Of a DNA stretch of 64,000 nt, positions 32-59,532 are shown one piece after another (position 1 is the first letter of the stretch; every line of letters begins with the position of its first letter). The position numbers were made by a program, and so were the translations under genes. The notes beneath the pieces are model-generated. The model did no database searches and had not been told where the DNA came from. It was given only the letters and a program-made list of their open reading frames with translations. This stretch comes from Salvelinus alpinus (Eukaryota; Chordata; Actinopteri; Salmoniformes; Salmonidae): positions 29,415,702-29,479,701 of the forward strand of contig NC_092090.1 in NCBI RefSeq assembly GCF_045679555.1, written 5' to 3'.

Positions 32-9990
<9,959 letters not shown>

Positions 9991-33660: not shown

Positions 33661-33661
33661 C

Positions 33662-33737
33662 TTGTGACTTTGGGTAGTCCATGGATGAGACCAGTACTAA
33701 GTCCATGGATGAGCATGTGTACTAAGCATGTGTACAA
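33662..33737 (+). repeat. Short mosaic copy of array-internal sequence at the left array edge
   Basis: The 76 bp before the first unit hold two partial copies of a motif found inside each unit: TAGTCCATGGATGAGACCAG (compare 37013-37033) and GTCCATGGATGAGCATGTGTAC (compare 36265-36286). Confidence 0.75.
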
Positions 33738-33739
33738 AG

Positions 33740-35311
33740 CGCACTTTAAAATGTTATTTTTTGCCATCATTGTAAGCCTGCCACACACACACTAAAATAT
33801 ACATTTATTAAACATAAGAAAGAGTGTGAGTTTTTGTCACAACCCAGCTCGTAGGAAGTGACAAAGAGCTCCTATAGAACCAGGGCACAAATAATAATAA
33901 TATAATAATAATCAATAATTTTGCTCTTTATTTAGCCATCTTACATATAAAACCTTATTTGTTCATCAAAAATTGTGAATAACTCACCACAGGTTAATGA
34001 GCAGGCTGTGCTTGAAAGGATGCACATAACTCTGCAATGTTGGGTTATATTAGAGAGAGTCTCAGTTTTAAATCATTTTTCACACACAGTCTGTGCCTGT
34101 ATTTAGTTTTCATGCTAGTGAGGGCCGAGAATCCACTCTCACATAGGTACATGGTTGCATAGGACATCAGTGTCGTAACAGCGCAAGAAATCTGGCAGTG
34201 GCTTCTGATTAAATAACATTTTCACAGAACCGCTTGTTGCAATTTCAATGAGGCTCTCTTGTTCAGATATCGGTAAGTGGACTGGAGGCAGGGCATGAAA
34301 GGGATAACGAATCCAGTTGTTTGTGTCATCCGTTTCGGGAAAGTATCTGCGTAATTGCACACCCAACTCATTCAGGTGCTTCGCTATATCACATTTGACA
34401 TTGTTCGTAAGCTTGAGTTAATTTGCACACAAAAAATCATACAATGCTTGAAAGACCTGTGTGTTGTCCTTGTTAATCCAGACAGACAAGAGCTCTAACT
34501 TCTTAATCATAGCCTCAATTTTGTCCCGCACATTGAGTATAGTTGAGAGAGTCCCTGTAATACTAGATTCAGATTATTCAGGCGAGAAGAAACATCACCC
34601 AGATAGGCCAGTCGTGTGAGAAACTCGTCATCATGCAAGTGGTGAGACAAGTGAAAATTATGGTCAGTAAAGAAAACTTTAAGATCGTCTCTCAATTTAA
34701 AAAAACGTGTCAATACTTTTCCCCTTGATAACCAGCGCACTTCTGTATGTTGTAAAATCGTTACATGGTCGCTGCCCATATCATTGCATAGTGTAGAAAA
34801 TACACATCAGGTACACCTCCAATTGACTCAAATTATGTCAATTAGCCTATCAGAAGCTTCTAAAGCCATGACATCATTTTCTGGAATTTTCCAAGCTGTT
34901 TAAAGGCACAGTCTACTTTGTGTATGTAAACGTCTGACCAACTGGAATTGTGATACAGTGAATATAAGTGAAGTACTCTTTCTGTAAACAATTGTTGGAA
35001 AAATGACTTGTGTCATGCACAAAGTAGATGTCCTAACCGACTTGCCAAAACTATAGTTGTTAACAAGAAATTTGTGGAGTGGTTGAAAAACCAGTTTTAA
35101 TGACTCCAACCTAAGTGTATGTAAACTTCTGACTTCAACTCTAAGACGCTTCTAGCCCCTTCTTATTAGTGGTATCTGTTGCTTTTATACATGTCTTACT
35201 ACTGAAAAGTCGTCTTAATTCTCACTCAAAAAACTCCTGGGGCTTATTTTTCCAAATTGGCATGTTTTGTTTCTAAATGTCTGCGCAAGAGTGAAGGTTT
35301 CATTGAGTTTA
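33740..35311 (-). pseudogene. hAT (ZBED5-like) transposase relic in unit 1; same relic in units 2-6
   Basis: Minus-strand reading gives blocks of a BED-finger hAT transposase: HTEVRWLSRGKVLTRFFKLR and LTRLAYLGDVSSRLNNLNL (34779-34507), FPETDDTNNWIRYPFHALPP and SEQESLIEIATSGSVK (34366-34139), then the hATC dimerisation motif YLCESGFSALTSMKTKYRHR at about 34160-34090 in another frame. The N-terminal NSMKPSLLRRHL finger flank is at 35311-35142, separated by the Tc1 end. Frameshifts and a 2-kb deletion make it non-functional. The same defects recur in every unit, so they predate the amplification. Confidence 0.9.
34808..35140 (-). mobile_element. Terminal fragment of a Sleeping Beauty-like Tc1 inside each unit
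   Basis: Matches 60674-61008 of the full element on the right flank: starts CAGGTACACCTCCAATTGAC and ends GTAAACTTCTGACTTCAACTC, followed by TA. It contains the two direct-repeat-like motifs (TGTGTATGTAAACGTCTGAC, TAAGTGTATGTAAACTTCTG) of an IR/DR end. The rest of the element was lost in the deletion. Equivalent copies occur in units 2-6. Confidence 0.9.
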
Positions 35312-35432
35312 TTTATTTTTATTTAAAAATGCATTTATTTATTTAAATTGATTGATTTCCTTATATGATCTGTAGCTCAGTAAAATCATAGAAATTGTTG
35401 CGTGTTTCATTTATATTTTTGTCCAGTATTAT
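35312..35432 (+). mobile_element. 3' end of a Tc1 family A element inside each unit
   Basis: TTGATTGATTTCCTTATATG, CTGTAGCTCAGTAAAATCAT and the terminus TTTATATTTTTGTCCAGTA match the 3' end of the family A elements at 30990-31093. It abuts the hAT finger remnant directly. Present in all six complete units, absent from the right-flank copy. Confidence 0.85.
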
Positions 35433-36263
35433 TAGTTGCTTCATCATTTTGCTTCATATTGTTGGCATACTCTCCCTCCCCTAGTTGTGTGCATCGGTCG
35501 GGTTATTTTAACCTAATTTGCATATGACACACCCACACCATGTAACATGGACAACCATGACCCATGTTCCTATGTGTTATGTAGGCATGCCACCCTGATG
35601 CCACATTGAGGTAGGGAAATTAGCTACTTTTGTATTTGTTTAGTAGGTTTAAAAAAAAAAAAATAATAATTAAAAATGTTTTTTATTATATATATATTTA
35701 TTTTTTTGTAACATTTTTTTGTGTGGATGATTTTGGGATCACTCTTTATACTGTGAAATAATACATATTAATTTTGGCTGTGTCCAGTGTTCCTGCAACT
35801 TTGTGGTCTACTGTATTGAACAAGTCCACCCTCACACACATTTTTGAGAGCGGTCCCCTTTTCCAGATGTGTTGCATTGTGGGTGTGAAATGGCCGCATA
35901 CAATAATACATTTCTGAATAGTGTACATTGAATTCCATGAAATCCTTGAATGTGAACAATAGTACATTTTGATAACTTTTATATAGACAGCCAACATAGT
36001 AAATAGACTACCATGACCCATGTTCCTATGCCACCCTTAGTGCTATAATCAAGTAGTGTCAGTAAAGTACATACTTTCATGATGTGAAGTAGAAGACCAT
36101 AATGAAAGTTTGATGAAAATGTTTTGTTTTTACCTGTTCTTCAGAGAAATGCAATGCTCTGAAGATGCTGTTCCAATTAACTGACAATGGAAGAATAAGG
36201 AGTAGAGGGCATGAAGCAGTCAAAATGACGACCTCTTAGTTTTTGTGCAGTACTAAGTACTAA

Positions 36264-37314
36264 TTCCATGGATGAGCATGTGTACTAAGCCTGCTGGCAG
36301 AGAAATAATGAATTCAGTGGCCCATGGCAGTGGCTTTTAACACCAACAAATGCATGTTAAACAAGAGTGTTAATTGATACCTTTTTTCTTGGCTATTAGG
36401 GGCCCTGCCTTAGACAGTATTCGGCAGTAACTACATAACAAGGAAAACCAGGCTAAACAGTAATTTACACAGTGATGTATAGGCCTAGTGTTTTGAGGTG
36501 CATTACAGAGACTACTGACTTCTGTATCATATTCTCTTTAACATAGTTGTGGGGCTTCCTCACTGAGGAAACCTACTGGACAAATAGTAAAATAGCAAAT
36601 TTTCCATACCTTTTAGGAAATGATGATATGGACTCTATTTGGCATGTACGTTTCTCGGTCATGGGTGGCACACACTGGGATATGGGGGAGGGGAGTGGGT
36701 GGGGTAAATGCATTGTCCTATTTTCCCCCACATGATAACGCTGAAGAGACACACACGAAGGTACAGACACATGCATACATTGTGATATTGTTGTATGGTG
36801 GTATTAAACATGTTGTATTGTAGATATGTATTGGTGTAATAATGTTATATGATGTACTTTTGTATCTTTTGTTGTATATGTAATGTAAGTGTTTTTATAT
36901 AGTTTTGGACCCCAGGAAGAGGGATACCTAATAAGTAATACTGACCTGGCTGACACAGAGAGGAAGGGGCCAGTGCTTTCTGAACTGACCCTGACTCATT
37001 GTGACTTTGGCTATTCCATGGATGAGACCAGTACCGTGTGTGAGTAGGCATGTGTACCTGGCCTACTGGTAGAGAAATAATGAATTCAGTGACCTGTGAC
37101 AGTGTCTTTTAAACACCCACAAATGCTTGTTAAACAAGTGTTAATTGATCACTTTTTTCTTGGCTACTGCCTTGTACAGTATTCAGAGCTAACTACATAT
37201 CACTGAAAACCAGCCATAACACTAACTTACATAGTGATGTATAGGCCTAGTGTTTTGTGGTGCATTATATATGCTACTAATGTTCACATCATATTTTCAG
37301 TATTTATTCTTTAA
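36264..37314 (+). repeat. Internal duplication within the unit (two ~290-bp copies 749 bp apart)
   Basis: 36264-36542 and 37013-37314 align along their length: ATTCCATGGATGAG, GAGAAATAATGAATTCAGTG, TTTTTTCTTGGCTA, GTGATGTATAGGCCTAGTGTTTTG and a TTCTTTAAC-type end. They have diverged far more than the units have from each other, so this duplication is older than the array. Shown for unit 1; present in each complete unit. Confidence 0.88.
36684..36704 (+). other. G-quadruplex motif, repeated once per unit
   Basis: GGGGGAGGGGAGTGGGTGGGG: four G-runs of three or more with loops of one to three bases, a canonical G4 pattern. The same motif occurs at the corresponding place in units 2-6 (for example 40663-40683). 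Confidence 0.8.
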
Positions 37315-37320
37315 CCTTTC

Positions 37321-37500
37321 TAGGACACACGTTCCGCTAGCGGAACCCCCCCCCCAACATTCCGCTGAAAAGGCGAAATTCAAAAATATTTTTGAAATAT
37401 GTAACTTTCACACATTAACAAGTCCAATACAGCAAATGAAAGACAAACATCTTGTTAATCTACCCATCATGTCCGATTTTTAAAATGTTTTACAGCGAAA
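37321..37500 (+). repeat. Palindrome-bearing dispersed repeat segment in each unit
   Basis: Contains the perfect 16-bp palindrome GTTCCGCTAGCGGAAC at 37331-37346, followed by a C run of 9-10, ATTCCGCTGAAAAGGCG and ATGTCCGATTTTTAAAATG. I recognise it as a common salmonid dispersed repeat of unassigned class. In units 2-6 the C run is one base shorter than in unit 1. Confidence 0.65.
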
Positions 37501-37720
37501 ACACAATAATAATTTACAAGTTAACATTTCTAATAAAATGTAGTAAAAATTCTAAATAATAAACAATTCAAACAATAAGCAATCAATCAACTTAAGTTAA
37601 TGAAATGAGAAACTAACAAAAGACTAAAAAGAAATGCAGTCAATAAACAAAAACAGGTAACAATCAAACAGGTAACAATCATCAGGTTCCTAAACTTTTT
37701 ATAATCAAATCAAATCAAAG

Positions 37721-40700
37721 CGCACTTTAAAATGTTATTTTTTGCCATCATTGTAAGCCTGCCACACACACACTAAAATATACATTTATTAAACATAAGA
37801 AAGAGTGTGAGTTTTTGTCACAACCCAGCTCGTAGGAAGTGACAAAGAGCTCCTATAGAACCAGGGCACAAATAATAATAATATAATAATAATCAATCAT
37901 TTTGCTCTTTATTTAGCCATCTTACATATAAAACCTTATTTGTTCATCAAAAATTGTGAATAACTCACCACAGGTTAATGAGCAGGCTGTGCTTGAAAGG
38001 ATGCACATAACTCTGCAATGTTGGGTTATATTAGAGAGAGTCTCAGTTTTAAATCATTTTTCACACACAGTCTGTGCCTGTATTTAGTTTTCATGCTAGT
38101 GAGGGCCGAGAATCCACTCTCACATAGGTACATGGTTGCATAGGACATCAGTGTCGTAACAGCGCAAGAAATCTGGCAGTGGCTTCTGATTAAATAACAT
38201 TTTCACAGAACCGCTTGTTGCAATTTCGATGAGGCTCTCTTGTTCAGATATCGGTAAGTGGACTGGAGGCAGGGCATGAAAGGGATAACGAATCCAGTTG
38301 TTTGTGTCATCCGTTTCGGGAAAGTATCTGCGTAATTGCACACCCAACTCATTCAGGTGCTTCGCTATATCACATTTGACATTGTTCGTAAGCTTGAGTT
38401 AATTTGCACACAAAAAATCATACAATGCTTGAAAGACCTGTGTGTTGTCCTTGTTAATCCAGACAGACAAGAGCTCTAACTTCTTAATCATAGCCTCAAT
38501 TTTGTCCCGCACATTGAGTATAGTTGAGAGAGTCCCTGTAATACTAGATTCAGATTATTCAGGCGAGAAGAAACATCACCCAGATAGGCCAGTCGTGTGA
38601 GAAACTCGTCATCATGCAAGTGGTGAGACAAGTGAAAATTATGGTCAGTAAAGAAAACTTTAAGATCGTCTCTCAATTTAAAAAAACGTGTCAATACTTT
38701 TCCCCTTGATAACCAGCGCACTTCTGTATGTTGTAAAATCGTTACATGGTCGCTGCCCATATCATTGCATAGTGTAGAAAATACACATCAGGTACACCTC
38801 CAATTGACTCAAATTATGTCAATTAGCCTATCAGAAGCTTCTAAAGCCATGACATCATTTTCTGGAATTTTTCAAGCTGTTTAAAGGCACAGTCTACTTT
38901 GTGTATGTAAACGTCTGACCAACTGGAATTGTGATACAGTGAATATAAGTGAAGTACTCTGTCTGTAAACAATTGTTGGAAAAATGACTTGTGTCATGCA
39001 CAAAGTAGATGTCCTAACCGACTTGCCAAAACTATAGTTGTTAACAAGAAATTTGTGGAGTGGTTGAAAAACCAGTTTTAATGACTCCAACCTAAGTGTA
39101 TGTAAACTTCTGACTTCAACTCTAAGACGCTTCTAGCCCCTTCTTATTAATGGTATCTGTTGCTTTTATACATGTCTTACTACTGAAAAGTCGTCTTAAT
39201 TCTCACTCAAAAAACTCCTGGGGCTTATTTTTCCAAATTGGCATGTTTTGTTTCTAAATGTCTGCGCAAGAGTGAAGGTTTCATTGAGTTTATTTATTTT
39301 TATTTAAAAATGCATTTATTTATTTAAATTGATTGATTTCCTTATATGATCTGTAGCTCAGTAAAATCATAGAAATTGTTGCGTGTTTCATTTATATTTT
39401 TGTCCAGTATTATTAGTTGCTTCATCATTTTGCTTCATATTGTTGGCATACTCTCCCTCCCCTAGTTGTGTGCATCGTCGGGTTATTTTAACCTAATTTG
39501 CATATGACACACCCACACCATGTAACATGGACAACCATGACCCATGTTCCTATGTGTTATGTAGGCATGCCACCCTGATGCCACATTGAGGTAGGGAAAT
39601 TAGCTACTTTTGTATTTGTTTAGTAGGTTTAAAAAAAAATAAAAAAATTTAAAAATGTTTTTTATTATATATATATTTATTTTTTTGTAACATTTTTTTG
39701 TGTGGATGATTTTGGGATCACTCTTTATACTGTGAAATAATACTTATTAATTTTGGCTGTGTCCAGTGTTCCTGCAACTTTGTGGTCTACTGTATTGAAC
39801 AAGTCCACCCTCACACACATTTTTGAGAGCGGTCCCCTTTTCCAGATGTGTTGCATTGTGGGTGTGAAATGGCCGCATACAATAATACATTTCTGAATAG
39901 TGTACATTGAATTCCATGAAATCCTTGAATGTGAACAATAGTACATTTTGATAACTTTTATATAGACAGCCAACATAGTAAATAGACTACCATGACCCAT
40001 GTTCCTATGCCACCCTTAGTGCTATAATCAAGTAGTGTCAGTAAAGTACATACTTTCATGATGTGAAGTAGAAGACCATAATGAAAGTTTGATGAAAATG
40101 TTTTGTTTTTACCTGTTCTTCAGAGAAATGCAATGCTCTGAAGATGCTGTTCCAATTAACTGACAATGGAAGAATAAGGAGTAGAGGGCATGAAGCAGTC
40201 AAAATGACGACCTCTTAGTTTTTGTGCAGTACTAAGTACTAATTCCATGGATGAGCATGTGTACTAAGCCTGCTGGCAGAGAAATAATGAATTCAGTGGC
40301 CCATGGCAGTGGCTTTTAACTCCAACAAATGCATGTTAAACAAGAGTGCTAATTGATACCTTTTTTCTTGGCTATTAGGGGCCCTGCCTTAGACAGTATT
40401 CGGCAGTAACTACATAACAAGGAAAACCAGGCTAAACAGTAATTTACACAGTGATGTATAGGCCTAGTGTTTTGAGGTGCATTACAGAGACTACTGACTT
40501 CTGTATCATATTCTCTTTAACATAGTTGTGGGGCTTCCTCACTGAGGAAACCTACTGGACAAATAGTAAAATAGCAAATTTTCCATACCTTTTAGGAAAT
40601 GATGATATGGACTCTATTTGGCATGTACGTTTCTCGGTCATGGGTGGCACACACTGGGATATGGGGGAGGGGAGTGGGTGGGGTAAATGCATTGTCCTAT

Positions 40701-41698
40701 TTTCCCCCACATGATAACGCTGAAGAGACACACACGAAGGTACAGACACATGCATACATTGTGATATTGTTGTATGGTGGTATTAAACATGTTGTATTGT
40801 AGATATGTATTGGTGTAATAATGTTATATGATGTACTTTTGTATCTTTTGTTGTATATGTAATGTAAGTGTTTTTATATAGTTTTGGACCCCAGGAAGAG
40901 GGATACCTAATAAGTAATACTGACCTGGCTGACACAGAGAGGAAGGGGCCAGTGCTTTCTGAACTGACCCTGACTCATTGTGACTTTGGCTATTCCATGG
41001 ATGAGACCAGTACCGTGTGTGAGTAGGCATGTGTACCTGGCCTACTGGTAGAGAAATAATGAATTCAGTGACCTGTGACAGTGTCTTTTAAACACCCACA
41101 AATGCTTGTTAAACAAGTGTTAATTGATCACTTTTTTCTTGGCTACTGCCTTGTACAGTATTCAGAGCTAACTACATATCACTGAAAACCAGCCATAACA
41201 CTAACTTACATAGTGATGTATAGGCCTAGTGTTTTGTGGTGCATTATATATGCTACTAATGTTCACATCATATTTTCAGTATTTATTCTTTAACCTTTCT
41301 AGGACACACGTTCCGCTAGCGGAACCCCCCCCCAACATTCCGCTGAAAAGGCGAAATTCAAAAATATTTTTGAAATATGTAACTTTCACACATTAACAAG
41401 TCCAATACAGCAAATGAAAGACAAACATCTTGTTAATCTACCCATCATGTCCAATTTTTAAAATGTTTTACAGCGAAAACACAATAATAATTTACAAGTT
41501 AACATTTCTAATAAAATGTAGTAAAAATTCTAAATAATAAACAATTCAAACAATAAGCAATGAATCAACTTAAGTTAATGAAATGAGAAACTAACAAAAG
41601 ACTAAAAAGAAATGCAGTCAATAAACAAAAACAGGTAACAATCAAACAGGTAACAATCATCAGGTTCCTAAACTTTTTATAATCAAATCAAATCAAAG
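37721..41698. repeat. Array unit 2 (type B)
   Basis: 3978 bp. hAT relics at 38120-38347 and 38488-38760 (minus). Type-B markers: GCATCGTCGGG (one G fewer), AACTCCAACAAATG, GAGTGCTAATTG and AGCAATGAATCAAC, all shared with unit 6. Private GTCCAATTTTT. Confidence 0.95.
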
Positions 41699-44600
41699 CG
41701 CACTTTAAAATGTTATTTTTTGCCATCATTGTAAGCCTGCCACACACACACTAAAATATACATTTATTAAACATAAGAAAGAGTGTGAGTTTTTGTCACA
41801 ACCCAGCTCGTAGGAAGTGACAAAGAGCTCCTATAGAACCAGGGCACAAATAATAATAATATAATAATAATCAATCATTTTGCTCTTTATTTAGCCATCT
41901 TACATATAAAACCTTATTTGTTCATCAAAAATTGTGAATAACTCACCACAGGTTAATGAGCAGGCTGTGCTTGAAAGGATGCACATAACTCTGCAATGTT
42001 GGGTTATATTAGAGAGAGTCTCAGTTTTAAATCATTTTTCACACACAGTCTGTGCCTGTATTTAGTTTTCATGCTAGTGAGGGCCGAGAATCCACTCTCA
42101 CATAGGTACATGGTTGCATAGGACATCAGTGTCGTAACAGCGCAAGAAATCTGGCAGTGGCTTCTGATTAAATAACATTTTCACAGAACCGCTTGTTGCA
42201 ATTTCGATGAGGCTCTCTTGTTCAGATATCGGTAAGTGGACTGGAGGCAGGGCATGAAAGGGATAACGAATCCAGTTGTTTGTGTCATCCGTTTCGGGAA
42301 AGTATCTGCGTAATTGCACACCCAACTCATTCAGGTGCTTCGCTATATCACATTTGACATTGTTCGTAAGCTTGAGTTAATTTGCACACAAAAAATCATA
42401 CAATGCTTGAAAGACCTGTGTGTTGTCCTTGTTAATCCAGACAGACAAGAGCTCTAACTTCTTAATCATAGCCTCAATTTTGTCCCGCACATTGAGTATA
42501 GTTGAGAGAGTCCCTGTAATACTAGATTCAGATTATTCAGGCGAGAAGAAACATCACCCAGATAGGCCAGTCGTGTGAGAAACTCGTCATCATGCAAGTG
42601 GTGAGACAAGTGAAAATTATGGTCAGTAAAGAAAACTTTAAGATCGTCTCTCAATTTAAAAAAACGTGTCAATACTTTTCCCCTTGATAACCAGCGCACT
42701 TCTGTATGTTGTAAAATCGTTACATGGTCGCTGCCCATATCATTGCATAGTGTAGAAAATACACATCAGGTACACCTCCAATTGACTCAAATTATGTCAA
42801 TTAGCCTATCAGAAGCTTCTAAAGCCATGACATCATTTTCTGGAATTTTCCAAGCTGTTTAAAGGCACAGTCTACTTTGTGTATGTAAACGTCTGACCAA
42901 CTGGAATTGTGATACAGTGAATATAAGTGAAGTACTCTGTCTGTAAACAATTGTTGGAAAAATGACTTGTGTCATGCACAAAGTAGATGTCCTAACCGAC
43001 TTGCCAAAACTATAGTTGTTAACAAGAAATTTGTGGAGTGGTTGAAAAACCAGTTTTAATGACTCCAACCTAAGTGTATGTAAACTTCTGACTTCAACTC
43101 TAAGACGCTTCTAGCCCCTTCTTATTAATGGTATCTGTTGCTTTTATACATGTCTTACTACTGAAAAGTCGTCTTAATTCTCACTCAAAAAACTCCTGGG
43201 GCTTATTTTTCCAAATTGGCATGTTTTGTTTCTAAATGTCTGCGCAAGAGTGAAGGTTTCATTGAGTTTATTTATTTTTATTTAAAAATGCATTTATTTA
43301 TTTAAATTGATTGATTTCCTTATATGATCTGTAGCTCAGTAAAATCATAGAAATTGTTGCGTGTTTCATTTATATTTTTGTCCAGTATTATTAGTTGCTT
43401 CATCATTTTGCTTCATATTGTTGGCATACTCTCCCTCCCCTAGTTGTGTGCATCGGTCGGGTTATTTTAACCTAATTTGCATATGACACACCCACACCAT
43501 GTAACATGGACAACCATGACCCATGTTCCTATGTGTTATGTAGGCATGCCACCCTGATGCCACATTGAGGTAGGGAAATTAGCTACTTTTGTATTTGTTT
43601 AGTAGGTTTAAAAAAAAAAAAAAAAAAAATTAAAAATGTTTTTTATTATATATATATTTATTTTTTTGTAACATTTTTTTGTGTGGATGATTTTGGGATC
43701 ACTCTTTATACTGTGAAATAATACATATTAATTTTGGCTGTGTCCAGTGTTCCTGCAACTTTGTGGTCTACTGTATTGAACAAGTCCACCCTCACACACA
43801 TTTTTGAGAGCGGTCCCCTTTTCCAGATGTGTTGCATTGTGGGTGTGAAATGGCCGCATACAATAATACATTTCTGAATAGTGTACATTGAATTCCATGA
43901 AATCCTTGAATGTGAACAATAGTACATTTTGATAACTTTTATATAGACAGCCAACATAGTAAATAGACTACCATGACCCATGTTCCTATGCCACCCTTAG
44001 TGCTATAATCAAGTAGTGTCAGTAAAGTACATACTTTCATGATGTGAAGTAGAAGACCATAATGAAAGTTTGATGAAAATGTTTTGTTTTTACCTGTTCT
44101 TCAGAGAAATGCAATGCTCTGAAGATGCTGTTCCAATTAACTGACAATGGAAGAATAAGGAGTAGAGGGCATGAAGCAGTCAAAATGACGACCTCTTAGT
44201 TTTTGTGCAGTACTAAGTACTAATTCCATGGATGAGCATGTGTACTAAGCCTGCTGGCAGAGAAATAATGAATTCAGTGGCCCATGGCAGTGGCTTTTAA
44301 CACCAACAAATGCATGTTAAACAAGAGTGTTAATTGATACCTTTTTTCTTGGCTATTAGGGGCCCTGCCTTAGACAGTATTCGGCAGTAACTACATAACA
44401 AGGAAAACCAGGCTAAACAGTAATTTACACAGTGATGTATAGGCCTAGTGTTTTGAGGTGCATTACAGAGACTACTGACTTCTGTATCATATTCTCTTTA
44501 ACATAGTTGTGGGGCTTCCTCACTGAGGAAACCTACTGGACAAATAGTAAAATAGCAAATTTTCCATACCTTTTAGGAAATGATGATATGGACTCTATTT

Positions 44601-45679
44601 GGCATGTACGTTTCTCGGTCATGGGTGGCACACACTGGGATATGGGGGAGGGGAGTGGGTGGGGTAAATGCATTGTCCTATTTTCCCCCACATGATAACG
44701 CTGAAGAGACACACACGAAGGTACAGACACATGCATACATTGTGATATTGTTGTATGGTGGTATTAAACATGTTGTATTGTAGATATGTATTGGTGTAAT
44801 AATGTTATATGATGTACTTTTGTATCTTTTGTTGTATATGTAATGTAAGTGTTTTTATATAGTTTTGGACCCCAGGAAGAGGGATACCTAATAAGTAATA
44901 CTGACCTGGCTGACACAGAGAGGAAGGGGCCAGTGCTTTCTGAACTGACCCTGACTCATTGTGACTTTGGCTATTCCATGGATGAGACCAGTACCGTGTG
45001 TGAGTAGGCATGTGTACCTGGCCTACTGGTAGAGAAATAATGAATTCAGTGACCTGTGACAGTGTCTTTTAAACACCCACAAATGCTTGTTAAACAAGTG
45101 TTAATTGATCACTTTTTTCTTGGCTACTGCCTTGTACAGTATTCAGAGCTAACTACATATCACTGAAAACCAGCCATAACACTAACTTACATAGTGATGT
45201 ATAGGCCTAGTGTTTTGTGGTGCATTATATATGCTACTAATGTTCACATCATATTTTCAGTATTTATTCTTTAACCTTTCTAGGACACACGTTCCGCTAG
45301 CGGAACCCCCCCCCAACATTCCGCTGAAAAGGCGAAATTCAAAAATATTTTTGAAATATGTAACTTTCACACATTAACAAGTCCAATACAGCAAATGAAA
45401 GACAAACATCTTGTTAATCTACCCATCATGTCCGATTTTTAAAATGTTTTACAGCGAAAACACAATAATAATTTACAAGTTAACATTTCTAATAAAATGT
45501 AGTAAAAATTCTAAATAATAAACAATTCAAACAATAAGCAATCAATCAACTTAAGTTAATGAAATGAGAAACTAACAAAAGACTAAAAAGAAATGCAGTC
45601 AATAAACAAAAACAGGTAACAATCAAACAGGTAACAATCATCAGGTTCCTAAACTTTTTATAATCAAATCAAATCAAAG
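41699..45679. repeat. Array unit 3 (type A)
   Basis: 3981 bp. hAT relics at 42098-42325 and 42466-42738 (minus). Shares CATATTAATTTTGG with units 1 and 5 and TTTTCCAAGCTG with unit 1. Longest poly(A) tract (about 43611). Confidence 0.95.
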
Positions 45680-48600: not shown

Positions 48601-49645
48601 CTGGGATATGGGGGAGGGGAGTGGGTGGGGTAAATGCATTGTCCTATTTTCCCCCACATGATAACGCTGAAGAGACACACACGAAGGTACAGACACATGC
48701 ATACATTGTGATATTGTTGTATGGTGGTATTAAACATGTTGTATTGTAGATATGTATTGGTGTAATAATGTTATATGATGTACTTTTGTATCTTTTGTTG
48801 TATATGTAATGTAAGTGTTTTTATATAGTTTTGGACCCCAGGAAGAGGGATACCTAATAAGTAATACTGACCTGGCTGACACAGAGAGGAAGGGGCCAGT
48901 GCTTTCTGAACTGACCCTGACTCATTGTGACTTTGGCTATTCCATGGATGAGACCAGTACCGTGTGTGAGTAGGCATGTGTACCTGGCCTACTGGTAGAG
49001 AAATAATGAATTCAGTGACCTGTGACAGTGTCTTTTAAACACCCACAAATGCTTGTTAAACAAGTGTTAATTGATCACTTTTTTCTTGGCTACTGCCTTG
49101 TACAGTATTCAGAGCTAACTACATATCACTGAAAACCAGCCATAACACTAACTTACATAGTGATGTATAGGCCTAGTGTTTTGTGGTGCATTATATATGC
49201 TACTAATGTTCACATCATATTTTCAGTATTTATTCTTTAACCTTTCTAGGACACACGTTCCGCTAGCGGAACCCCCCCCCAACATTCCGCTGAAAAGGCG
49301 AAATTCAAAAATATTTTTGAAATATGTAACTTTCACACATTAACAAGTCCAATACAGCAAATGAAAGACAAACATCTTGTTAATCTACCCATCATGTCCG
49401 ATTTTTAAAATGTTTTACAGCGAAAACACAATAATAATTTACAAGTTAACATTTCTAATAAAATGTAGTAAAAATTCTAAATAATAAACAATTCAAACAA
49501 TAAGCAATCAATCAACTTAAGTTAATGAAATGAGAAACTAACAAAAGACTAAAAAGAAATGCAGTCAATAAACAAAAACAGGTAACAATCAAACAGGTAA
49601 CAATCATCAGGTTCCTAAACTTTTTATAATCAAATCAAATCAAAG
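45680..49645. repeat. Array unit 4 (mosaic of types A and B)
   Basis: 3966 bp, the shortest. hAT relics at 46079-46306 and 46447-46719 (minus). It has lost 14-15 bp near 47647 between two copies of TTTTTTTGT. It is B-like at CTTGTTAATTTTGG but A-like at GCATCGGTCGGG, AACACCAAC and AGCAATCAATC, suggesting past exchange between unit types. Confidence 0.95.
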
Positions 49646-52600
49646 CGCACTTTAAAATGTTATTTTTTGCCATCATTGTAAGCCTGCCACACACACACTA
49701 AAATATACATTTATTAAACATAAGAAAGAGTGTGAGTTTTTGTCACAACCCAGCTCGTAGGAAGTGACAAAGAGCTCCTATAGAACCAGGGCACAAATAA
49801 TAATAATATAATAATAATCAATCATTTTGCTCTTTATTTAGCCATCTTACATATAAAACCTTATTTGTTCATCAAAAATTGTGAATAACTCACCACAGGT
49901 TAATGAGCAGGCTGTGCTTGAAAGGATGCACATAACTCTGCAATGTTGGGTTATATTAGAGAGAGTCTCAGTTTTAAATCATTTTTCACACACAGTCTGT
50001 GCCTGTATTTAGTTTTCATGCTAGTGAGGGCCGAGAATCCACTCTCACATAGGTACATGGTTGCATAGGACATCAGTGTCGTAACAGCGCAAGAAATCTG
50101 GCAGTGGCTTCTGATTAAATAACATTTTCACAGAACCGCTTGTTGCAATTTCGATGAGGCTCTCTTGTTCAGATATCGGTAAGTGGACTGGAGGCAGGGC
50201 ATGAAAGGGATAACGAATCCAGTTGTTTGTGTCATCCGTTTCGGGAAAGTATCTGCGTAATTGCACACCCAACTCATTCAGGTGCTTCGCTATATCACAT
50301 TTGACATTGTTCGTAAGCTTGAGTTAATTTGCACACAAAAAATCATACAATGCTTGAAAGACCTGTGTGTTGTCCTTGTTAATCCAGACAGACAAGAGCT
50401 CTAACTTCTTAATCATAGCCTCAATTTTGTCCCGCACATTGAGTATAGTTGAGAGAGTCCCTGTAATACTAGATTCAGATTATTCAGGCGAGAAGAAACA
50501 TCACCCAGATAGGCCAGTCGTGTGAGAAACTCGTCATCATGCAAGTGGTGAGACAAGTGAAAATTATGGTCAGTAAAGAAAACTTTAAGATCGTCTCTCA
50601 ATTTAAAAAAACGTGTCAATACTTTTCCCCTTGATAACCAGCGCACTTCTGTATGTTGTAAAATCGTTACATGGTCGCTGCCCATATCATTGCATAGTGT
50701 AGAAAATACACATCAGGTACACCTCCAATTGACTCAAATTATGTCAATTAGCCTATCAGAAGCTTCTAAAGCCATGACATCATTTTCTGGAATTTTTCAA
50801 GCTGTTTAAAGGCACAGTCTACTTTGTGTATGTAAACGTCTGACCAACTGGAATTGTGATACAGTGAATATAAGTGAAGTACTCTGTCTGTAAACAATTG
50901 TTGGAAAAATGACTTGTGTCATGCACAAAGTAGATGTCCTAACCGACTTGCCAAAACTATAGTTGTTAACAAGAAATTTGTGGAGTGGTTGAAAAACCAG
51001 TTTTAATGACTCCAACCTAAGTGTATGTAAACTTCTGACTTCAACTCTAAGACGCTTCTAGCCCCTTCTTATTAATGGTATCTGTTGCTTTTATACATGT
51101 CTTACTACTGAAAAGTCGTCTTAATTCTCACTCAAAAAACTCCTGGGGCTTATTTTTCCAAATTGGCATGTTTTGTTTCTAAATGTCTGCGCAAGAGTGA
51201 AGGTTTCATTGAGTTTATTTATTTTTATTTAAAAATGCATTTATTTATTTAAATTGATTGATTTCCTTATATGATCTGTAGCTCAGTAAAATCATAGAAA
51301 TTGTTGCGTGTTTCATTTATATTTTTGTCCAGTATTATTAGTTGCTTCATCATTTTGCTTCATATTGTTGGCATACTCTCCCTCCCCTAGTTGTGTGCAT
51401 CGGTCGGGTTATTTTAACCTAATTTGCATATGACACACCCACACCATGTAACATGGACAACCATGACCCATGTTCCTATGTGTTATGTAGGCATGCCACC
51501 CTGATGCCACATTGAGGTAGGGAAATTAGCTACTTTTGTATTTGTTTAGTAGGTTTAAAAAAAAAAAATATAAATTAAAAATGTTTTTTATTATATATAT
51601 ATTTATTTTTTTGTAACATTTTTTTGTGTGGATGATTTTGGGATCACTCTTTATACTGTGAAATAATACATATTAATTTTGGCTGTGTCCAGTGTTCCTG
51701 CAACTTTGTGGTCTACTGTATTGAACAAGTCCACCCTCACACACATTTTTGAGAGCGGTCCCCTTTTCCAGATGTGTTGCATTGTGGGTGTGAAATGGCC
51801 GCATACAATAATACATTTCTGAATAGTGTACATTGAATTCCATGAAATCCTTGAATGTGAACAATAGTACATTTTGATAACTTTTATATAGACAGCCAAC
51901 ATAGTAAATAGACTACCATGACCCATGTTCCTATGCCACCCTTAGTGCTATAATCAAGTAGTGTCAGTAAAGTACATACTTTCATGATGTGAAGTAGAAG
52001 ACCATAATGAAAGTTTGATGAAAATGTTTTGTTTTTACCTGTTCTTCAGAGAAATGCAATGCTCTGAAGATGCTGTTCCAATTAACTGACAATGGAAGAA
52101 TAAGGAGTAGAGGGCATGAAGCAGTCAAAATGACGACCTCTTAGTTTTTGTGCAGTACTAAGTACTAATTCCATGGATGAGCATGTGTACTAAGCCTGCT
52201 GGCAGAGAAATAATGAATTCAGTGGCCCATGGCAGTGGCTTTTAACACCAACAAATGCATGTTAAACAAGAGTGTTAATTGATACCTTTTTTCTTGGCTA
52301 TTAGGGGCCCTGCCTTAGACAGTATTCGGCAGTAACTACATAACAAGGAAAACCAGGCTAAACAGTAATTTACACAGTGATGTATAGGCCTAGTGTTTTG
52401 AGGTGCATTACAGAGACTACTGACTTCTGTATCATATTCTCTTTAACATAGTTGTGGGGCTTCCTCACTGAGGAAACCTACTGGACAAATAGTAAAATAG
52501 CAAATTTTCCATACCTTTTAGGAAATTATGATATGGACTCTATTTGGCATGTACGTTTCTCGGTCATGGGTGGCACACACTGGGATATGGGGGAGGGGAG

Positions 52601-53624
52601 TGGGTGGGGTAAATGCATTGTCCTATTTTCCCCCACATGATAACGCTGAAGAGACACACACGAAGGTACAGACACATGCATACATTGTGATATTGTTGTA
52701 TGGTGGTATTAAACATGTTGTATTGTAGATATGTATTGGTGTAATAATGTTATATGATGTACTTTTGTATCTTTTGTTGTATATGTAATGTAAGTGTTTT
52801 TATATAGTTTTGGACCCCAGGAAGAGGGATACCTAATAAGTAATACTGACCTGGCTGACACAGAGAGGAAGGGGCCAGTGCTTTCTGAACTGACCCTGAC
52901 TCATTGTGACTTTGGCTATTCCATGGATGAGACCAGTACCGTGTGTGAGTAGGCATGTGTACCTGGCCTACTGGTAGAGAAATAATGAATTCAGTGACCT
53001 GTGACAGTGTCTTTTAAACACCCACAAATGCTTGTTAAACAAGTGTTAATTGATCACTTTTTTCTTGGCTACTGCCTTGTACAGTATTCAGAGCTAACTA
53101 CATATCACTGAAAACCAGCCATAACACTAACTTACATAGTGATGTATAGGCCTAGTGTTTTGTGGTGCATTATATATGCTACTAATGTTCACATCATATT
53201 TTCAGTATTTATTCTTTAACCTTTCTAGGACACACGTTCCGCTAGCGGAACCCCCCCCCAACATTCCGCTGAAAAGGCGAAATTCAAAAATATTTTTGAA
53301 ATATGTAACTTTCACACATTAACAAGTCCAATACAGCAAATGAAAGACAAACATCTTGTTAATCTACCCATCATGTCCGATTTTTAAAATGTTTTACAGC
53401 GAAAACACAATAATAATTTACAAGTTAACATTTCTAATAAAATGTAGTAAAAATTCTAAATAATAAACAATTCAAACAATAAGCAATCAATCAACTTAAG
53501 TTAATGAAATGAGAAACTAACAAAAGACTAAAAAGAAATGCAGTCAATAAACAAAAACAGGTAACAATCAAACAGGTAACAATCATCAGGTTCCTAAACT
53601 TTTTATAATCAAATCAAATCAAAG
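49646..53624. repeat. Array unit 5 (type A)
   Basis: 3979 bp. hAT relics at 50045-50272 and 50413-50685 (minus). Type A at CATATTAATTTTGG but B-like TTTTTCAAGCTG. Private GGAAATTATGATATGG (52524-52539). Confidence 0.95.
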
Positions 53625-56600
53625 CGCACTTTAAAATGTTATTTTTTGCCATCATTGTAAGCCTGCCACACACACACTAAAATATACATTTATTAAACAT
53701 AAGAAAGAGTGTGAGTTTTTGTCACAACCCAGCTCGTAGGAAGTGACAAAGAGCTCCTATAGAACCAGGGCACAAATAATAATAATATAATAATAATCAA
53801 TCATTTTGCTCTTTATTTAGCCATCTTACATATAAAACCTTATTTGTTCATCAAAAATTGTGAATAACTCACCACAGGTTAATGAGCAGGCTGTGCTTGA
53901 AAGGATGCACATAACTCTGCAATGTTGGGTTATATTAGAGAGAGTCTCAGTTTTAAATCATTTTTCACACACAGTCTGTGCCTGTATTTAGTTTTCATGC
54001 TAGTGAGGGCCGAGAATCCACTCTCACATAGGTACATGGTTGCATAGGACATCAGTGTCGTAACAGCGCAAGAAATCTGGCAGTGGCTTCTGATTAAATA
54101 ACATTTTCACAGAACCGCTTGTTGCAATTTCGATGAGGCTCTCTTGTTCAGATATCGGTAAGTGGACTGGAGGCAGGGCATGAAAGGGATAACGAATCCA
54201 GTTGTTTGTGTCATCCGTTTCGGGAAAGTATCTGCGTAATTGCACACCCAACTCATTCAGGTGCTTCGCTATATCACATTTGACATTGTTCGTAAGCTTG
54301 AGTTAATTTGCACACAAAAAATCATACAATGCTTGAAAGACCTGTGTGTTGTCCTTGTTAATCCAGACAGACAAGAGCTCTAACTTCTTAATCATAGCCT
54401 CAATTTTGTCCCGCACATTGAGTATAGTTGAGAGAGTCCCTGTAATACTAGATTCAGATTATTCAGGCGAGAAGAAACATCACCCAGATAGGCCAGTCGT
54501 GTGAGAAACTCGTCATCATGCAAGTGGTGAGACAAGTGAAAATTATGGTCAGTAAAGAAAACTTTAAGATCGTCTCTCAATTTAAAAAAACGTGTCAATA
54601 CTTTTCCCCTTGATAACCAGCGCACTTCTGTATGTTGTAAAATCGTTACATGGTCGCTGCCCATATCATTGCATAGTGTAGAAAATACACATCAGGTACA
54701 CCTCCAATTGACTCAAATTATGTCAATTAGCCTATCAGAAGCTTCTAAAGCCATGACATCATTTTCTGGAATTTTTCAAGCTGTTTAAAGGCACAGTCTA
54801 CTTTGTGTATGTAAACGTCTGACCAACTGGAATTGTGATACAGTGAATATAAGTGAAGTACTCTGTCTGTAAACAATTGTTGGAAAAATGACTTGTGTCA
54901 TGCACAAAGTAGATGTCCTAACCGACTTGCCAAAACTATAGTTGTTAACAAGAAATTTGTGGAGTGGTTGAAAAACCAGTTTTAATGACTCCAACCTAAG
55001 TGTATGTAAACTTCTGACTTCAACTCTAAGACGCTTCTAGCCCCTTCTTATTAATGGTATCTGTTGCTTTTATACATGTCTTACTACTGAAAAGTCGTCT
55101 TAATTCTCACTCAAAAAACTCCTGGGGCTTATTTTTCCAAATTGGCATGTTTTGTTTCTAAATGTCTGCGCAAGAGTGAAGGTTTCATTGAGTTTATTTA
55201 TTTTTATTTAAAAATGCATTTATTTATTTAAATTGATTGATTTCCTTATATGATCTGTAGCTCAGTAAAATCATAGAAATTGTTGCGTGTTTCATTTATA
55301 TTTTTGTCCAGTATTATTAGTTGCTTCATCATTTTGCTTCATATTGTTGGCATACTCTCCCTCCCCTAGTTGTGTGCATCGTCGGGTTATTTTAACCTAA
55401 TTTGCATATGACACACCCACACCATGTAACATGGACAACCATGACCCATGTTCCTATGTGTTATGTAGGCATGCCACCCTGATGCCACATTGAGGTAGGG
55501 AAATTAGCTACTTTTGTATTTGTTTAGTAGGTTTAAAAAAAAAATTATTTTTTAAAAATGTTTTTTATTATATATATATTTATTTTTTTGTAACATTTTT
55601 TTGTGTGGATGATTTTGGGATCACTCTTTATACTGTGAAATAATACTTGTTAATTTTGGCTGTGTCCAGTGTTCCTGCAACTTTGTGGTCTACTGTATTG
55701 AACAAGTCCACCCTCACACACATTTTTGAGAGCGGTCCCCTTTTCCAGATGTGTTGCATTGTGGGTGTGAAATGGCCGCATACAATAATACATTTCTGAA
55801 TAGTGTACATTGAATTCCATGAAATCCTTGAATGTGAACAATAGTACATTTTGATAACTTTTATATAGACAGCCAACATAGTAAATAGACTACCATGACC
55901 CATGTTCCTATGCCACCCTTAGTGCTATAATCAAGTAGTGTCAGTAAAGTACATACTTTCATGATGTGAAGTAGAAGACCATAATGAAAGTTTGATGAAA
56001 ATGTTTTGTTTTTACCTGTTCTTCAGAGAAATGCAATGCTCTGAAGATGCTGTTCCAATTAACTGACAATTGAAGAATAAGGAGTAGAGGGCATGAAGCA
56101 GTCAAAATGACGACCTCTTAGTTTTTGTGCAGTACTAAGTACTAATTCCATGGATGAGCATGTGTACTAAGCCTGCTGGCAGAGAAATAATGAATTCAGT
56201 GGCCCATGGCAGTGGCTTTTAACTCCAACAAATGCATGTTAAACAAGAGTGCTAATTGATACCTTTTTTCTTGGCTATTAGGGGCCCTGCCTTAGACAGT
56301 ATTCGGCAGTAACTACATAACAAGGAAAACCAGGCTAAACAGTAATTTACACAGTGATGTATAGGCCTAGTGTTTTGAGGTGCATTACAGAGACTACTGA
56401 CTTCTGTATCATATTCTCTTTAACATAGTTGTGGGGCTTCCTCACTGAGGAAACCTACTGGACAAATAGTAAAATAGCAAATTTTCCATACCTTTTAGGA
56501 AATGATGATATGGACTCTATTTGGCATGTACGTTTCTCGGTCATGGGTGGCACACACTGGGATATGGGGGAGGGGAGTGGGTGGGGTAAATGCATTGTCC

Positions 56601-57601
56601 TATTTTCCCCCACATGATAACGCTGAAGAGACACACACGAAGGTACAGACACATGCATACATTGTGATATTGTTGTATGGTGGTATTAAACATGTTGTAT
56701 TGTAGATATGTATTGGTGTAATAATGTTATATGATGTACTTTTGTATCTTTTGTTGTATATGTAATGTAAGTGTTTTTATATAGTTTTGGACCCCAGGAA
56801 GAGGGATACCTAATAAGTAATACTGACCTGGCTGACACAGAGAGGAAGGGGCCAGTGCTTTCTGAACTGACCCTGACTCATTGTGACTTTGGCTATTCCA
56901 TGGATGAGACCAGTACCGTGTGTGAGTAGGCATGTGTACCTGGCCTACTGGTAGAGAAATAATGAATTCAGTGACCTGTGACAGTGTCTTTTAAACACCC
57001 ACAAATGCTTGTTAAACAAGTGTTAATTGATCACTTTTTTCTTGGCTACTGCCTTGTACAGTATTCAGAGCTAACTACATATCACTGAAAACCAGCCATA
57101 ACACTAACTTACATAGTGATGTATAGGCCTAGTGTTTTGTGGTGCATTATATATGCTACTAATGTTCACATCATATTTTCAGTATTTATTCTTTAACCTT
57201 TCTAGGACACACGTTCCGCTAGCGGAACCCCCCCCCAACATTCCGCTGAAAAGGCGAAATTCAAAAATATTTTTGAAATATGTAACTTTCACACATTAAC
57301 AAGTCCAATACAGCAAATGAAAGACAAACATCTTGTTAATCTACCCATCATGTCCGATTTTTAAAATGTTTTACAGCGAAAACACAATAATAATTTACAA
57401 GTTAACATTTCTAATAAAATGTAGTAAAAATTCTAAATAATAAACAATTCAAACAATAAGCAATGAATCAACTTAAGTTAATGAAATGAGAAACTAACAA
57501 AAGACTAAAAAGAAATGCAGTCAATAAACAAAAACAGGTAACAATCAAACAGGTAACAATCATCAGGTTCCTAAACTTTTTATAATCAAATCAAATCAAA
57601 G
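53625..57601. repeat. Array unit 6 (type B)
   Basis: 3977 bp. hAT relics at 54024-54251 and 54392-54664 (minus). Shares the B markers of unit 2 (CATCGTCGGG, AACTCCAAC, GTGCTAATTG, CAATGAATC) and CTTGTTAATT with unit 4. Private ACAATTGAAGAAT (56066-56078). Confidence 0.95.
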
Positions 57602-58668
57602 CGCACTTTAAAATGTTATTTTTTGCCATCATTGTAAGCCTGCCACACACACACTAAAATATACATTTATTAAACATAAGAAAGAGTGTGAGTTTTTGTC
57701 ACAACCCAGCTCGTAGGAAGTGACAAAGAGCTCCTATAGAACCAGGGCACAAATAATAATAATATAATAATAATCAATCATTTTGCTCTTTATTTAGCCA
57801 TCTTACATATAAAACCTTATTTGTTCATCAAAAATTGTGAATAACTCACCACAGGTTAATGAGCAGGCTGTGCTTGAAAGGATGCACATAACTCTGCAAT
57901 GTTGGGTTATATTAGAGAGAGTCTCAGTTTTAAATCATTTTTCACACACAGTCTGTGCCTGTATTTAGTTTTCATGCTAGTGAGGGCCGAGAATCCACTC
58001 TCACATAGGTACATGGTTGCATAGGACATCAGTGTCGTAACAGCGCAAGAAATCTGGCAGTGGCTTCTGATTAAATAACATTTTCACAGAACCGCTTGTT
58101 GCAATTTCGATGAGGCTCTCTTGTTCAGATATCGGTAAGTGGACTGGAGGCAGGGCATGAAAGGGATAACGAATCCAGTTGTTTGTGTCATCCGTTTCGG
58201 GAAAGTATCTGCGTAATTGCACACCCAACTCATTCAGGTGCTTCGCTATATCACATTTGACATTGTTCGTAAGCTTGAGTTAATTTGCACACAAAAAATC
58301 ATACAATGCTTGAAAGACCTGTGTGTTGTCCTTGTTAATCCAGACAGACAAGAGCTCTAACTTCTTAATCATAGCCTCAATTTTGTCCCGCACATTGAGT
58401 ATAGTTGAGAGAGTCCCTGTAATACTAGATTCAGATTATTCAGGCGAGAAGAAACATCACCCAGATAGGCCAGTCGTGTGAGAAACTCGTCATCATGCAA
58501 GTGGTGAGACAAGTGAAAATTATGGTCAGTAAAGAAAACTTTAAGATCGTCTCTCAATTTAAAAAAACGTGTCAATACTTTTCCCCTTGATAACCAGCGC
58601 ACTTCTGTATGTTGTAAAATCGTTACATGGTCGCTGCCCATATCATTGCATAGTGTAGAAAATACACA
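57602..58668. repeat. Array unit 7 (partial)
   Basis: The first 1067 bp of a unit, apparently identical by eye to the hAT part of units 2-6. It ends where the other units carry a deletion junction. Beyond this point the hAT sequence continues undeleted. Confidence 0.93.
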
Positions 58669-59532
58669 AGAGCTCAGGGGCCTTGCTGTAACAAAGGTAA
58701 CCATTTTCACTGTAGTGTCCAAAACATCTTTCAAGCTGTCAGGCATTCCTTTGGCAGCAAGAGCCTCTCGTGGATGCTGCAGTGTACCCAAGTGACGTCG
58801 GGAGCAACTCCTTGTACGCGTGTTACCACTCCACTATGTCTCCCTGTCATGACTTTTGCGCCATCAGTACAGATACCAACATATCTTGACCATCAAAGTC
58901 CATTTGATGTCACAAAGCTGTCCAGTCATTTAAAAATGTCCTCTCCAGTTGTCCTGGTTTCCAGTGGTGTACAGAAGAGGATGTCTTCCTAAATTGACCC
59001 CCCATAAACGTAACAGAAATATACCAGGAGCTGTGCCAGGCCCGACACGTCTGTTGACTCTTCCAGCTATAACACATAGAATTCAATGGCTTGTATGCGA
59101 AGCAGTAATTGTTTCAAAACATCTCCTGCCATGTCACTGATGCGTTGTGAAACGGTGTTGTTTGATGAAGACATTTTCTGTATAGTTTTCTTGGCCTTTT
59201 CCCCCAGCATTGTCCCAGCCATATCTGCGGCAGCAGGAAGAATTAAGTCCTCCACAATAGTATGGGGCTTGCCTGTCCTAACCACTCGGTAGCTCACCAT
59301 ATACAGTTGAAGTCGGAAGTTTACATACACCTTAGCCAAATACATTTAAACTCAGTTTTTTCACAATTCCTGACATTTAATCCTAGTAAAAATTCCCTGT
59401 CTTAGGTCAGTTAGGATCACCACTTTATTTTAAGAATGTGAAATGTCAGAATAATAGTAGAGAGAATGATTTATTTCAGCTTTTATTTCTTTCATCACAT
59501 TCCCAGTGGGTCATAAGTTTACATACACTCAA

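What the first reader, a model, noticed from the sequence alone, without database searches (positions are those of the whole stretch)
33740..58668. A 25-kb TE-derived macrosatellite inside a dennd5a intron
Seven starts of the same unit at intervals of 3966-3981 bp, head to tail and almost identical, occupy more than a third of the window. The unit is not a satellite monomer or a single transposon but a composite of hAT, two Tc1 families and an unknown segment, amplified as a block. The near identity implies recent amplification or continuing homogenisation. The location in intron 1 of a conserved Rab GEF gene is unusual and could affect splicing, chromatin or copy-number variation.
Basis: seen in the sequence. 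Interest (0 to 1): 0.85.

Follow-up and report, generated by a model that had tools for sequence, protein, structure and literature searches.

The report
Intronic tandem array carrying U7-RNA gene copies
A 25-kb block of six near-identical 4-kb repeats sits inside the first intron of a fish dennd5a gene; each repeat mixes transposon scraps with a copy of the gene for U7, a small RNA that trims histone messages, and that copy looks unlikely to work in its usual job.

Summary
The array is real. Window 33735-58668 holds seven unit starts 3,966-3,981 bp apart: six full units plus 1,072 bp. Units differ by 4-15 substitutions. It fills 60% of the 41,634-bp intron 1 of dennd5a.

Each unit carries one U7 snRNA copy (Rfam 45 bits, cut-off 34) with a PSE-like element, a decayed U8 snoRNA copy and a second U7 relic. 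The ohnologous dennd5a has the same segment in single copy. This gives the ancestral order and points to local tandem duplication followed by homogenisation.

The array U7 keeps its Sm site and hairpin. Its histone guide is changed and pairs no better than shuffles with four histone 3' ends of this genome, so the copies are probably passengers.

The genome also has at least 60 U7 matches over cut-off, including a second, unrelated U7-bearing tandem array on C18. A review excepts teleosts from snRNA pseudogenes.

Best reading: an RNU2-like snRNA macrosatellite built on a probably dead U7 gene.

The parts
33735..58668 (.). whole tandem array: six full units plus a 1,072-bp partial, in the form L-A-(B-X-A)x6-rest
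33738..34806 (-). segment A of unit 1: end part of an old hAT (ZBED-like) element; begins about 80 bp inside the element's end
   Evidence: 83-94% copies on many chromosomes; end position from 8 other copies; hAT dimerisation domain in 2 of 5 related ORFs at E 3e-4 and 8e-4, just under Pfam's cut-off
34807..35141 (-). segment B, part 1: end of the Tc1 that is nested in the hAT (1,994 bp of the distal copy, 58669-60662, are absent here)
   Evidence: 95.9% to 60663-61167
35142..35309 (-). segment B, part 2: hAT resumes after the nested Tc1; unit-to-unit duplication junction at about 35309
35337..35429 (.). end fragment of a second Tc1-like family (also at 30999-31091)
35614..35650 (+). decayed U7 relic, 5' half only, running into A-rich sequence (one per unit)
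   Evidence: inverted copy of the U7 gene; its C33 counterpart scores 25.4 bits to U7, below the cut-off of 34; found in 6 of 6 units
36056..36177 (+). decayed U8 snoRNA copy (23.7 bits, cut-off 41, D box lost), one per unit
   Evidence: E 0.32 on its own; C33 counterpart 39.0 bits; starts at 36056, 40035, 44016, 47982, 51961, 55938
36550..36604 (-). U7 snRNA copy of unit 1, 45 bits, model 1-62/62
40529..40583 (-). U7 snRNA copy of unit 2, identical
44510..44564 (-). U7 snRNA copy of unit 3, identical
48476..48530 (-). U7 snRNA copy of unit 4, identical
52455..52509 (-). U7 snRNA copy of unit 5, identical
56432..56486 (-). U7 snRNA copy of unit 6, identical
36650..36668 (-). PSE-like element 46-64 bases upstream of the U7 copy; identical in 6 of 6 units (also 40629, 44610, 48576, 52555, 56532)
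   Evidence: human consensus from PMC5493778, loose fit judged by eye
37311..37506 (.). about 196-bp dispersed repeat, 90-94% at many chromosomes
   Evidence: query 1882-2077
58669..59303 (-). continuation of the same hAT right of the array
59303..61007 (-). Sleeping-Beauty-type Tc1 nested in that hAT (itself carrying a LINE 3'-end fragment at 60413-60466)
   Evidence: (PF25787, E 1.7e-19)
61008..61300 (-). hAT resumes
63749..63804 (-). further U7 relic in the same intron (29.4 bits, below cut-off 34) with octamer and PSE-like element
23149..23248 (+). dennd5a exon 1 coding part, followed by the splice donor
   Evidence: query protein recalled

Best explanation
The array is a locus-specific macrosatellite formed in place. 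Old dennd5a intron 1 held a small cluster of U7 and U8 copies followed by a hAT insertion, and this is shared with the ohnologous gene (shown). In this copy a Sleeping-Beauty-type Tc1 then landed in the hAT (shown). A tandem duplication joined the far side of the hAT to the start of the U7/U8 stretch, and 1,994 bp were lost from the duplicate (junction and deletion shown, order of events inferred). Unequal exchange between the repeated hAT ends then raised the unit to six copies and keeps them alike (inferred). The six U7 copies were carried along. They keep the Sm site, the hairpin and a PSE-like element, but the octamer and the histone-guide sequence are altered, so they most likely do not process histone mRNA and may not be transcribed (inferred).
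For: Tandem structure and sub-percent divergence. U7 in 6 of 6 units, full model length, over the curated cut-off. On C33 the same intron segment is single copy in the order Xa - Tc1 - Xb(U7) - Xc - hAT, so the unit order A-B-X is a rotation of native sequence, as tandem duplication makes it. The hAT is shared by both ohnologues at 84-88%. The segment shared by unit and distal copy differs by 10 mismatches and 4 gaps in 514 columns, against 0.25% between units. The four private substitutions of the leftmost unit all lie in its first 1,434 bp, an edge effect expected under unequal exchange. The array U7 guide pairs with four histone 3' ends at -3.3 to -4.7 kcal/mol, and 138-239 of 300 shuffles do as well.
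Against: Sm site and hairpin are unchanged against the ohnologue over 36 nt where the surrounding identity is 84% (chance about 0.002, boundary chosen after seeing the data), which hints at constraint. The U7 copy scores well (45 bits). The pairing contrast is weaker than it looks: the presumed main genes L035/L048 clearly beat shuffles on only one of four histone ends (8 of 300) and do so poorly on the other three (35-57 of 300); only L040 does well on all four (5-8 of 300). Only 4 of 74 histone matches were read, three from one chromosome and alike. 8 of 22 substitution sites lie in one A/T-rich stretch where alignment is uncertain. No transcript, read depth or second individual was available. 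Why both L and X join the hAT at the same base, after a shared CAA, is not explained.
Confidence: 0.75

Rival explanations
1. The array is an expressed, dosage-raising U7 (or U7-like) gene array, like the human RNU2 U2-gene macrosatellite, kept in copy number by selection.
For: One gene copy per unit, identical in 6 of 6 units; Sm site and hairpin intact; PSE-like element at a plausible distance; a second U7-bearing tandem array with an unrelated unit exists on C18.
Against: Guide core GCTCTTTTAG, present in 22 of the 30 best-scoring U7 loci fetched, is changed and does not pair with the histone 3' ends read; the octamer present in the C33 copy and the third copy is altered; U7 loci with the full core exist elsewhere, among them the pair L035/L048.
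Confidence: 0.1
2. Assembly artefact: a single unit or a few units expanded or mis-joined by the assembler.
For: One assembly only; identity is very high.
Against: Pairs of units differ by 4-15 substitutions and 1-3 indels, the leftmost unit has its own edge variants, and the A|B deletion junction occurs in 6 of 6 units.
Confidence: 0.07
3. The unit came from an excised circle that was amplified by rolling-circle replication and reinserted here.
For: Head-to-tail order; both left junctions start at the same hAT base after CAA.
Against: Unit content is the local native sequence and the last A runs straight on into the rest of the same hAT, as in-place duplication predicts; no other place holds this unit among the matches scored (40 of 3,536 candidates; 39 of 11,868, which also failed to list the array itself).
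Confidence: 0.12
4. The block is a mobile composite element that moves as a unit.
For: Made of several transposon pieces.
Against: Apart from a 196-bp dispersed repeat, the X segment was found only in this array and, rearranged, at the ohnologue (40 of 3,536 candidates scored); of 15 inverted pairs in and around unit 1 none bounds the unit in the A-B-X phase, though a 24-nt, 83%, A/T-rich pair lies near both ends of X (35334-35357 and 37581-37604).
Confidence: 0.02

Closest known systems
Human RNU2 macrosatellite (U2 snRNA genes; PMC4132748 and PMC3795722, abstracts read)
   Same: kb-scale head-to-tail unit with one snRNA gene per unit, near a conserved protein gene
   Different: 6.1-kb unit, 5-82 copies and a gene for an essential splicing RNA there; here a 4-kb unit, six copies in one assembly, U7 with an altered guide, inside an intron and rich in transposon pieces
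Composite satellite DNA from 'TE graveyards' (review PMC12628747, abstract and its section 5 read)
   Same: monomer contains pieces of several different transposons, some nested
   Different: that model concerns degraded heterochromatin and short stretches of similarity; here long recognisable pieces in a gene intron, with the ancestral order readable from the ohnologue
Second U7-bearing tandem array in the same genome, C18:14922294-14933052
   Same: one U7 copy per unit, head to tail
   Different: period 5,346-5,358 bp, at least three copies, 100% identical over 3,055 bp; at E 1e-4 the 8,401 bp read match unit 1 only at the U7 and its upstream part
Variant U1 (vU1) snRNA genes of humans (PMC5493778, passages read)
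   Same: snRNA copies, once taken for pseudogenes, that keep promoter-like elements
   Different: vU1 genes are reported as transcribed; nothing is known of transcription here

Membership tests
macrosatellite | tandem head-to-tail units of about 1 kb or more, highly alike | tested here: met
macrosatellite | copy-number variation between individuals | not testable with these tools
   one assembly only
U7 snRNA | covariance-model match over the curated cut-off | tested here: met
   45 bits against 34, model 1-62 of 62
U7 snRNA | U7-type Sm site and 3' hairpin | tested here: met
   AUUUGUCCAG (model: AUUUGUCUAG) and a 9-bp stem
U7 snRNA | 5' end complementary to the histone downstream element | tested here: not met
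   core changed; duplex no better than shuffles on 4 of 4 histone 3' ends read, out of 74 matches listed
working pol II snRNA gene | PSE, Oct1 site and 3' box at usual places | tested here: inconclusive
   PSE-like element at -46 to -64 and 3'-box-like sequence, both by eye; octamer altered in the array, intact in C33 and third copy
working U7 gene | transcript bound by Lsm10/Lsm11 | not testable with these tools
   no RNA data
U8 snoRNA | covariance-model match over cut-off, C and D boxes | tested here: not met
   23.7 bits against 41, D box lost; U8 copies at 95.6 and 94.7 bits are on C24 and C13
hAT transposon fragment (segment A) | dispersed copies with shared ends | tested here: met
hAT transposon fragment (segment A) | hAT transposase domain | tested here: inconclusive
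   Dimer_Tnp_hAT in 2 of 5 related ORFs, 21.0 and 19.5 bits against 21.4; no Pfam hit over cut-off in the window's own broken hAT pieces
Tc1/mariner, Sleeping Beauty type (59303-61007) | HTH_SB domain | tested here: met
   PF25787, 69.7 bits, E 1.7e-19
RNU2-type snRNA macrosatellite | functional snRNA gene in every unit | tested here: inconclusive
   gene copy in 6 of 6 units but guide altered

The most novel reading that the evidence does not exclude
The array encodes six copies of a naturally retargeted U7-like RNA: Sm core and hairpin under constraint, guide freed from histone mRNA and pointing at another transcript, amplified for dosage. With a second U7-bearing array on C18 and dozens of dispersed U7 copies, this fish lineage would then have repeatedly multiplied U7 genes into new roles.
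Probability: 0.06. Interest if true: 0.85.

Novelty: new variant of a known kind. Interest (0 to 1): 0.52.

Why it matters
It turns a 'transposon macrosatellite' into an snRNA-gene macrosatellite whose birth can be read, because the ohnologous dennd5a intron preserves the single-copy order. It also shows a genome, taken for a salmonid, with at least 60 U7 matches over the Rfam cut-off, although a review says that all metazoans studied except teleosts and birds have snRNA-derived pseudogenes (PMC5493778, passage read; whether the study behind that sentence covered U7 was not checked). Two unrelated U7-bearing arrays in one genome make it testable whether snRNA genes seed tandem amplification.

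Tried and rejected
Tried with little result: Pfam on eight broken ORF pieces of the hAT and Tc1 copies gave matches over cut-off in two, both Tc1-type; four more hAT pieces gave nothing over cut-off. Considered LTR-type recombination because of the A-(BA)n form; rejected since A is a dispersed hAT fragment. Considered that the array U7 is a retropseudogene; rejected since its upstream part is shared with other U7 copies. Considered that the dispersed U7 family is a fold-back element; not supported: inverted arms in 9 and direct ones in 14 of 33 sequences. Considered U8 as a working gene here; rejected. Papers: ten searches, judged from the listings, showed no paper describing this array or a U7 expansion in salmonids; the library lacks most subscription journals.
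Full report
OBSERVATION. Self-comparison finds one long periodic region, 33735-58668, with offsets of 3,981 bp and near-multiples. Unit starts are 33736, 37717, 41695, 45676, 49642, 53621 and 57598, with intervals 3981, 3978, 3981, 3966, 3979 and 3977. The form is L-A-(B-X-A)x6-rest: six full units and a last 1,072-bp A. Pairs of units differ by 4-15 substitutions and 1-3 indel events, mean 0.25%, range 0.10-0.38%. Of 22 substitution sites, 11 are private to one unit and 11 are shared in mosaic patterns; 8 of the 22 lie in one A/T-rich stretch (columns 1924-1935) where the alignment is uncertain. The four private sites of unit 1 all lie in its first 1,434 bp. Distinct variants argue against a simple assembly duplication, but only one assembly was seen.

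PLACE. A recalled human DENND5A sequence matches exon 1 at 23158-23259 and later exons on the fetched DNA right of the window. The coding start is 23149, the donor GTAAGT follows 23248, and exon 2 starts at base 883 past the window, so intron 1 is 41,634 bp and the array is 60% of it. On the left, importin-7-like exons run on the minus strand between 9280 and 33 (recalled query). The window lies in an unnamed 2.37-Gb genome, contig C5. I take it for a salmonid from genome size, ohnologue and transposons; the species was not established. A second dennd5a, on the minus strand of C33, is taken as the ohnologue: exon 1 at L030:3-65, further exons in L026. In Arctic charr dennd5a lies on LG10, which is ohnologous to LG15 (PMC6802010, passages read).

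WHAT THE UNIT IS MADE OF. A (33738-34806) is the end part of a hAT element: other copies at 83-94% lie on many chromosomes (39 of 11,868 candidates scored, the array itself not among those listed), and eight of them show the element's end about 80 bp further out than where A starts. Two of five related ORFs match the hAT dimerisation domain (E 3e-4 and 8e-4, just under the cut-off); the window's own broken pieces match nothing over cut-off. Right of the array the same hAT goes on at 58669-59303, is broken by a Tc1 at 59303-61007 with a Sleeping Beauty HTH domain (E 1.7e-19), and resumes at 61008. B (34807-35309) is the end of that same nested Tc1 plus the next 168 bp of hAT; the unit lacks 58669-60662 (1,994 bp). 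X (about 35310-37716) begins with a Tc1-like end also present at 30999-31091 (family name recalled) and holds a 196-bp dispersed repeat. Beyond that repeat, the matches scored (40 of 3,536 candidates) are the six units and, at 75-95%, C33:24624959-24629036.

U7 AND U8. Rfam puts one U7 snRNA in each of the six units, minus strand, 45 bits against a cut-off of 34, full model length (alignment); the six are identical. A PSE-like sequence lies 46-64 bases upstream in all six; against the human consensus quoted in PMC5493778 the fit is loose, and the 3'-box-like sequence was judged by eye. The octamer ATTTGCAT is present in the C33 copy and in a further U7 relic at 63749-63804 (29.4 bits) but altered in the array. 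Each unit also has a plus-strand half U7 (35614-35650) and a decayed U8 snoRNA (36056-36177, 23.7 bits, E 0.32, D box lost), believed because its C33 counterpart scores 39.0 bits (cut-off 41). The C33 intron has U7 at 42.1 bits and U7-like at 28.2 and 25.4 bits, not in tandem. U8 copies at 95.6 and 94.7 bits are on C24 and C13, so the intronic U8 is a side copy.

ORIGIN. In window orientation C33 reads: 29320-32512, then Xa (35333-36217), then 32512-33727, then Xb (36276-37314, with U7), then Xc (37508-37666), then hAT (33799-59303 and on, without the nested Tc1), then, after about 3.5 kb of other sequence, 61049-61573. So X natively precedes A. The unit order A-B-X is a rotation, with the new joint at about 35309 (hAT to Xa). 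The hAT is shared by both ohnologues at 84-88% and is therefore old. B differs from its distal counterpart by 10 mismatches and 4 gaps in 514 columns, about 2%, against 0.25% among units: the first duplication is older than the last homogenisation. I infer tandem duplication, deletion and unequal exchange. Not explained: L and X join the hAT at the same base after a shared CAA.

DOES THE U7 WORK? Against the C33 copy the array U7 has 5 differences in 55, none in the 36-nt stretch with Sm site and hairpin (chance 0.002 at 16% background, a boundary chosen after looking). The guide core GCTCTTTTAG occurs in 22 of the 30 fetched U7 loci, which were the best-scoring ones, but not in the array, C33 or third copy. 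I could read 4 of 74 histone stem-loop matches, three of them alike and from one chromosome. Their downstream element, as I read it, is AATAAGAG(T/C)ATT. The array guide pairs at -3.3 to -4.7 kcal/mol, with 138-239 of 300 shuffles as good, and the C33 guide at -3.7 to -5.6 (184-284 of 300). The pair L035/L048 gives -7.2 to -9.5: 8 of 300 on one histone end but 35-57 of 300 on the other three, so the yardstick itself is only moderate. L040 gives -12.9 to -14.9 (5-8 of 300) and the third copy -7.1 to -8.4 (29-78 of 300) (all). The array copies are therefore most likely not histone-processing U7 genes. A retargeted RNA is not excluded.

WIDER SETTING. The genome search gave 64 U7 matches, 60 over cut-off; 65 of 435,450 first-look candidates were scored and the array's own copies were not listed, so this is a lower bound; the 14 control genomes gave 6 with matches, none over cut-off. 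Of the 30 loci fetched, 27 share flanking sequence beyond U7 with at least three others (exceptions L035, L048, L049). In the five members profiled, the shared flanks fade between about -330 and -450 upstream and +200 and +430 downstream, so this is a dispersed repeat with U7 inside. By simple patterns few of the 30 keep promoter elements: octamer in 5, PSE-like core in 4. Array and C33 copies share only about -110 to +75 with that repeat. Three loci on C18 are 5,346 and 5,358 bp apart and identical over 3,055 bp: another U7-bearing tandem array, sharing with this unit only U7 and its upstream part at E 1e-4. Among the 64 matches, 5 pairs lie within 100 kb where 0.17 are expected at random; three of the five come from that one array.

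KNOWN KINDS. It is built like a macrosatellite and resembles human RNU2 (6.1-kb unit, 5-82 copies, 5 x 10^-3 mutations per generation; PMC4132748, abstract read) and the composite satellites of PMC12628747 (abstract and its section 5 read). It is not shown to be an snRNA-supplying array.

Noticed in passing
L033-L062 (30 loci on many chromosomes): A dispersed family of U7 snRNA copies (60 matches over cut-off genome-wide, lower bound); 27 of 30 fetched loci share flanks beyond U7, with A/T-rich TACTACAGT-type short repeats around them; how it spread is unknown.
   Followed up: partly
G000:C18:14922294-14933052 (L057, L058, L059, L063): A second U7-bearing tandem array: at least three copies at 5,346-5,358 bp, 3,055 bp 100% identical. 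Complete identity could also be an assembly duplication.
   Followed up: partly
L035 (C35:19198165) and L048 (C4:52199122): A U7 pair sharing about 2 kb at 83% (probably ohnologues) with the full guide core and a long hairpin: candidates for main U7 genes, although L048 has a changed Sm site (TTTGTCAAG) and both pair only moderately with the histone ends read.
   Followed up: partly
G000:C2:90198542-90259848: Six histone stem-loop matches at a regular spacing of about 12.25 kb: a tandem histone-type array.
   Followed up: no
window 60413-60466: LINE 3'-end (UnaL2) fragment inserted in the Tc1 that is itself nested in the hAT: three levels of nesting.
   Followed up: no
window 4971-5114: tRNA-like sequence directly followed by a LINE 3'-end element on the plus strand: a tRNA-derived SINE, probably.
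   Followed up: no
window 36276-36536 and 37048-37298: An older direct duplication at 79% inside the unit.
   Followed up: no
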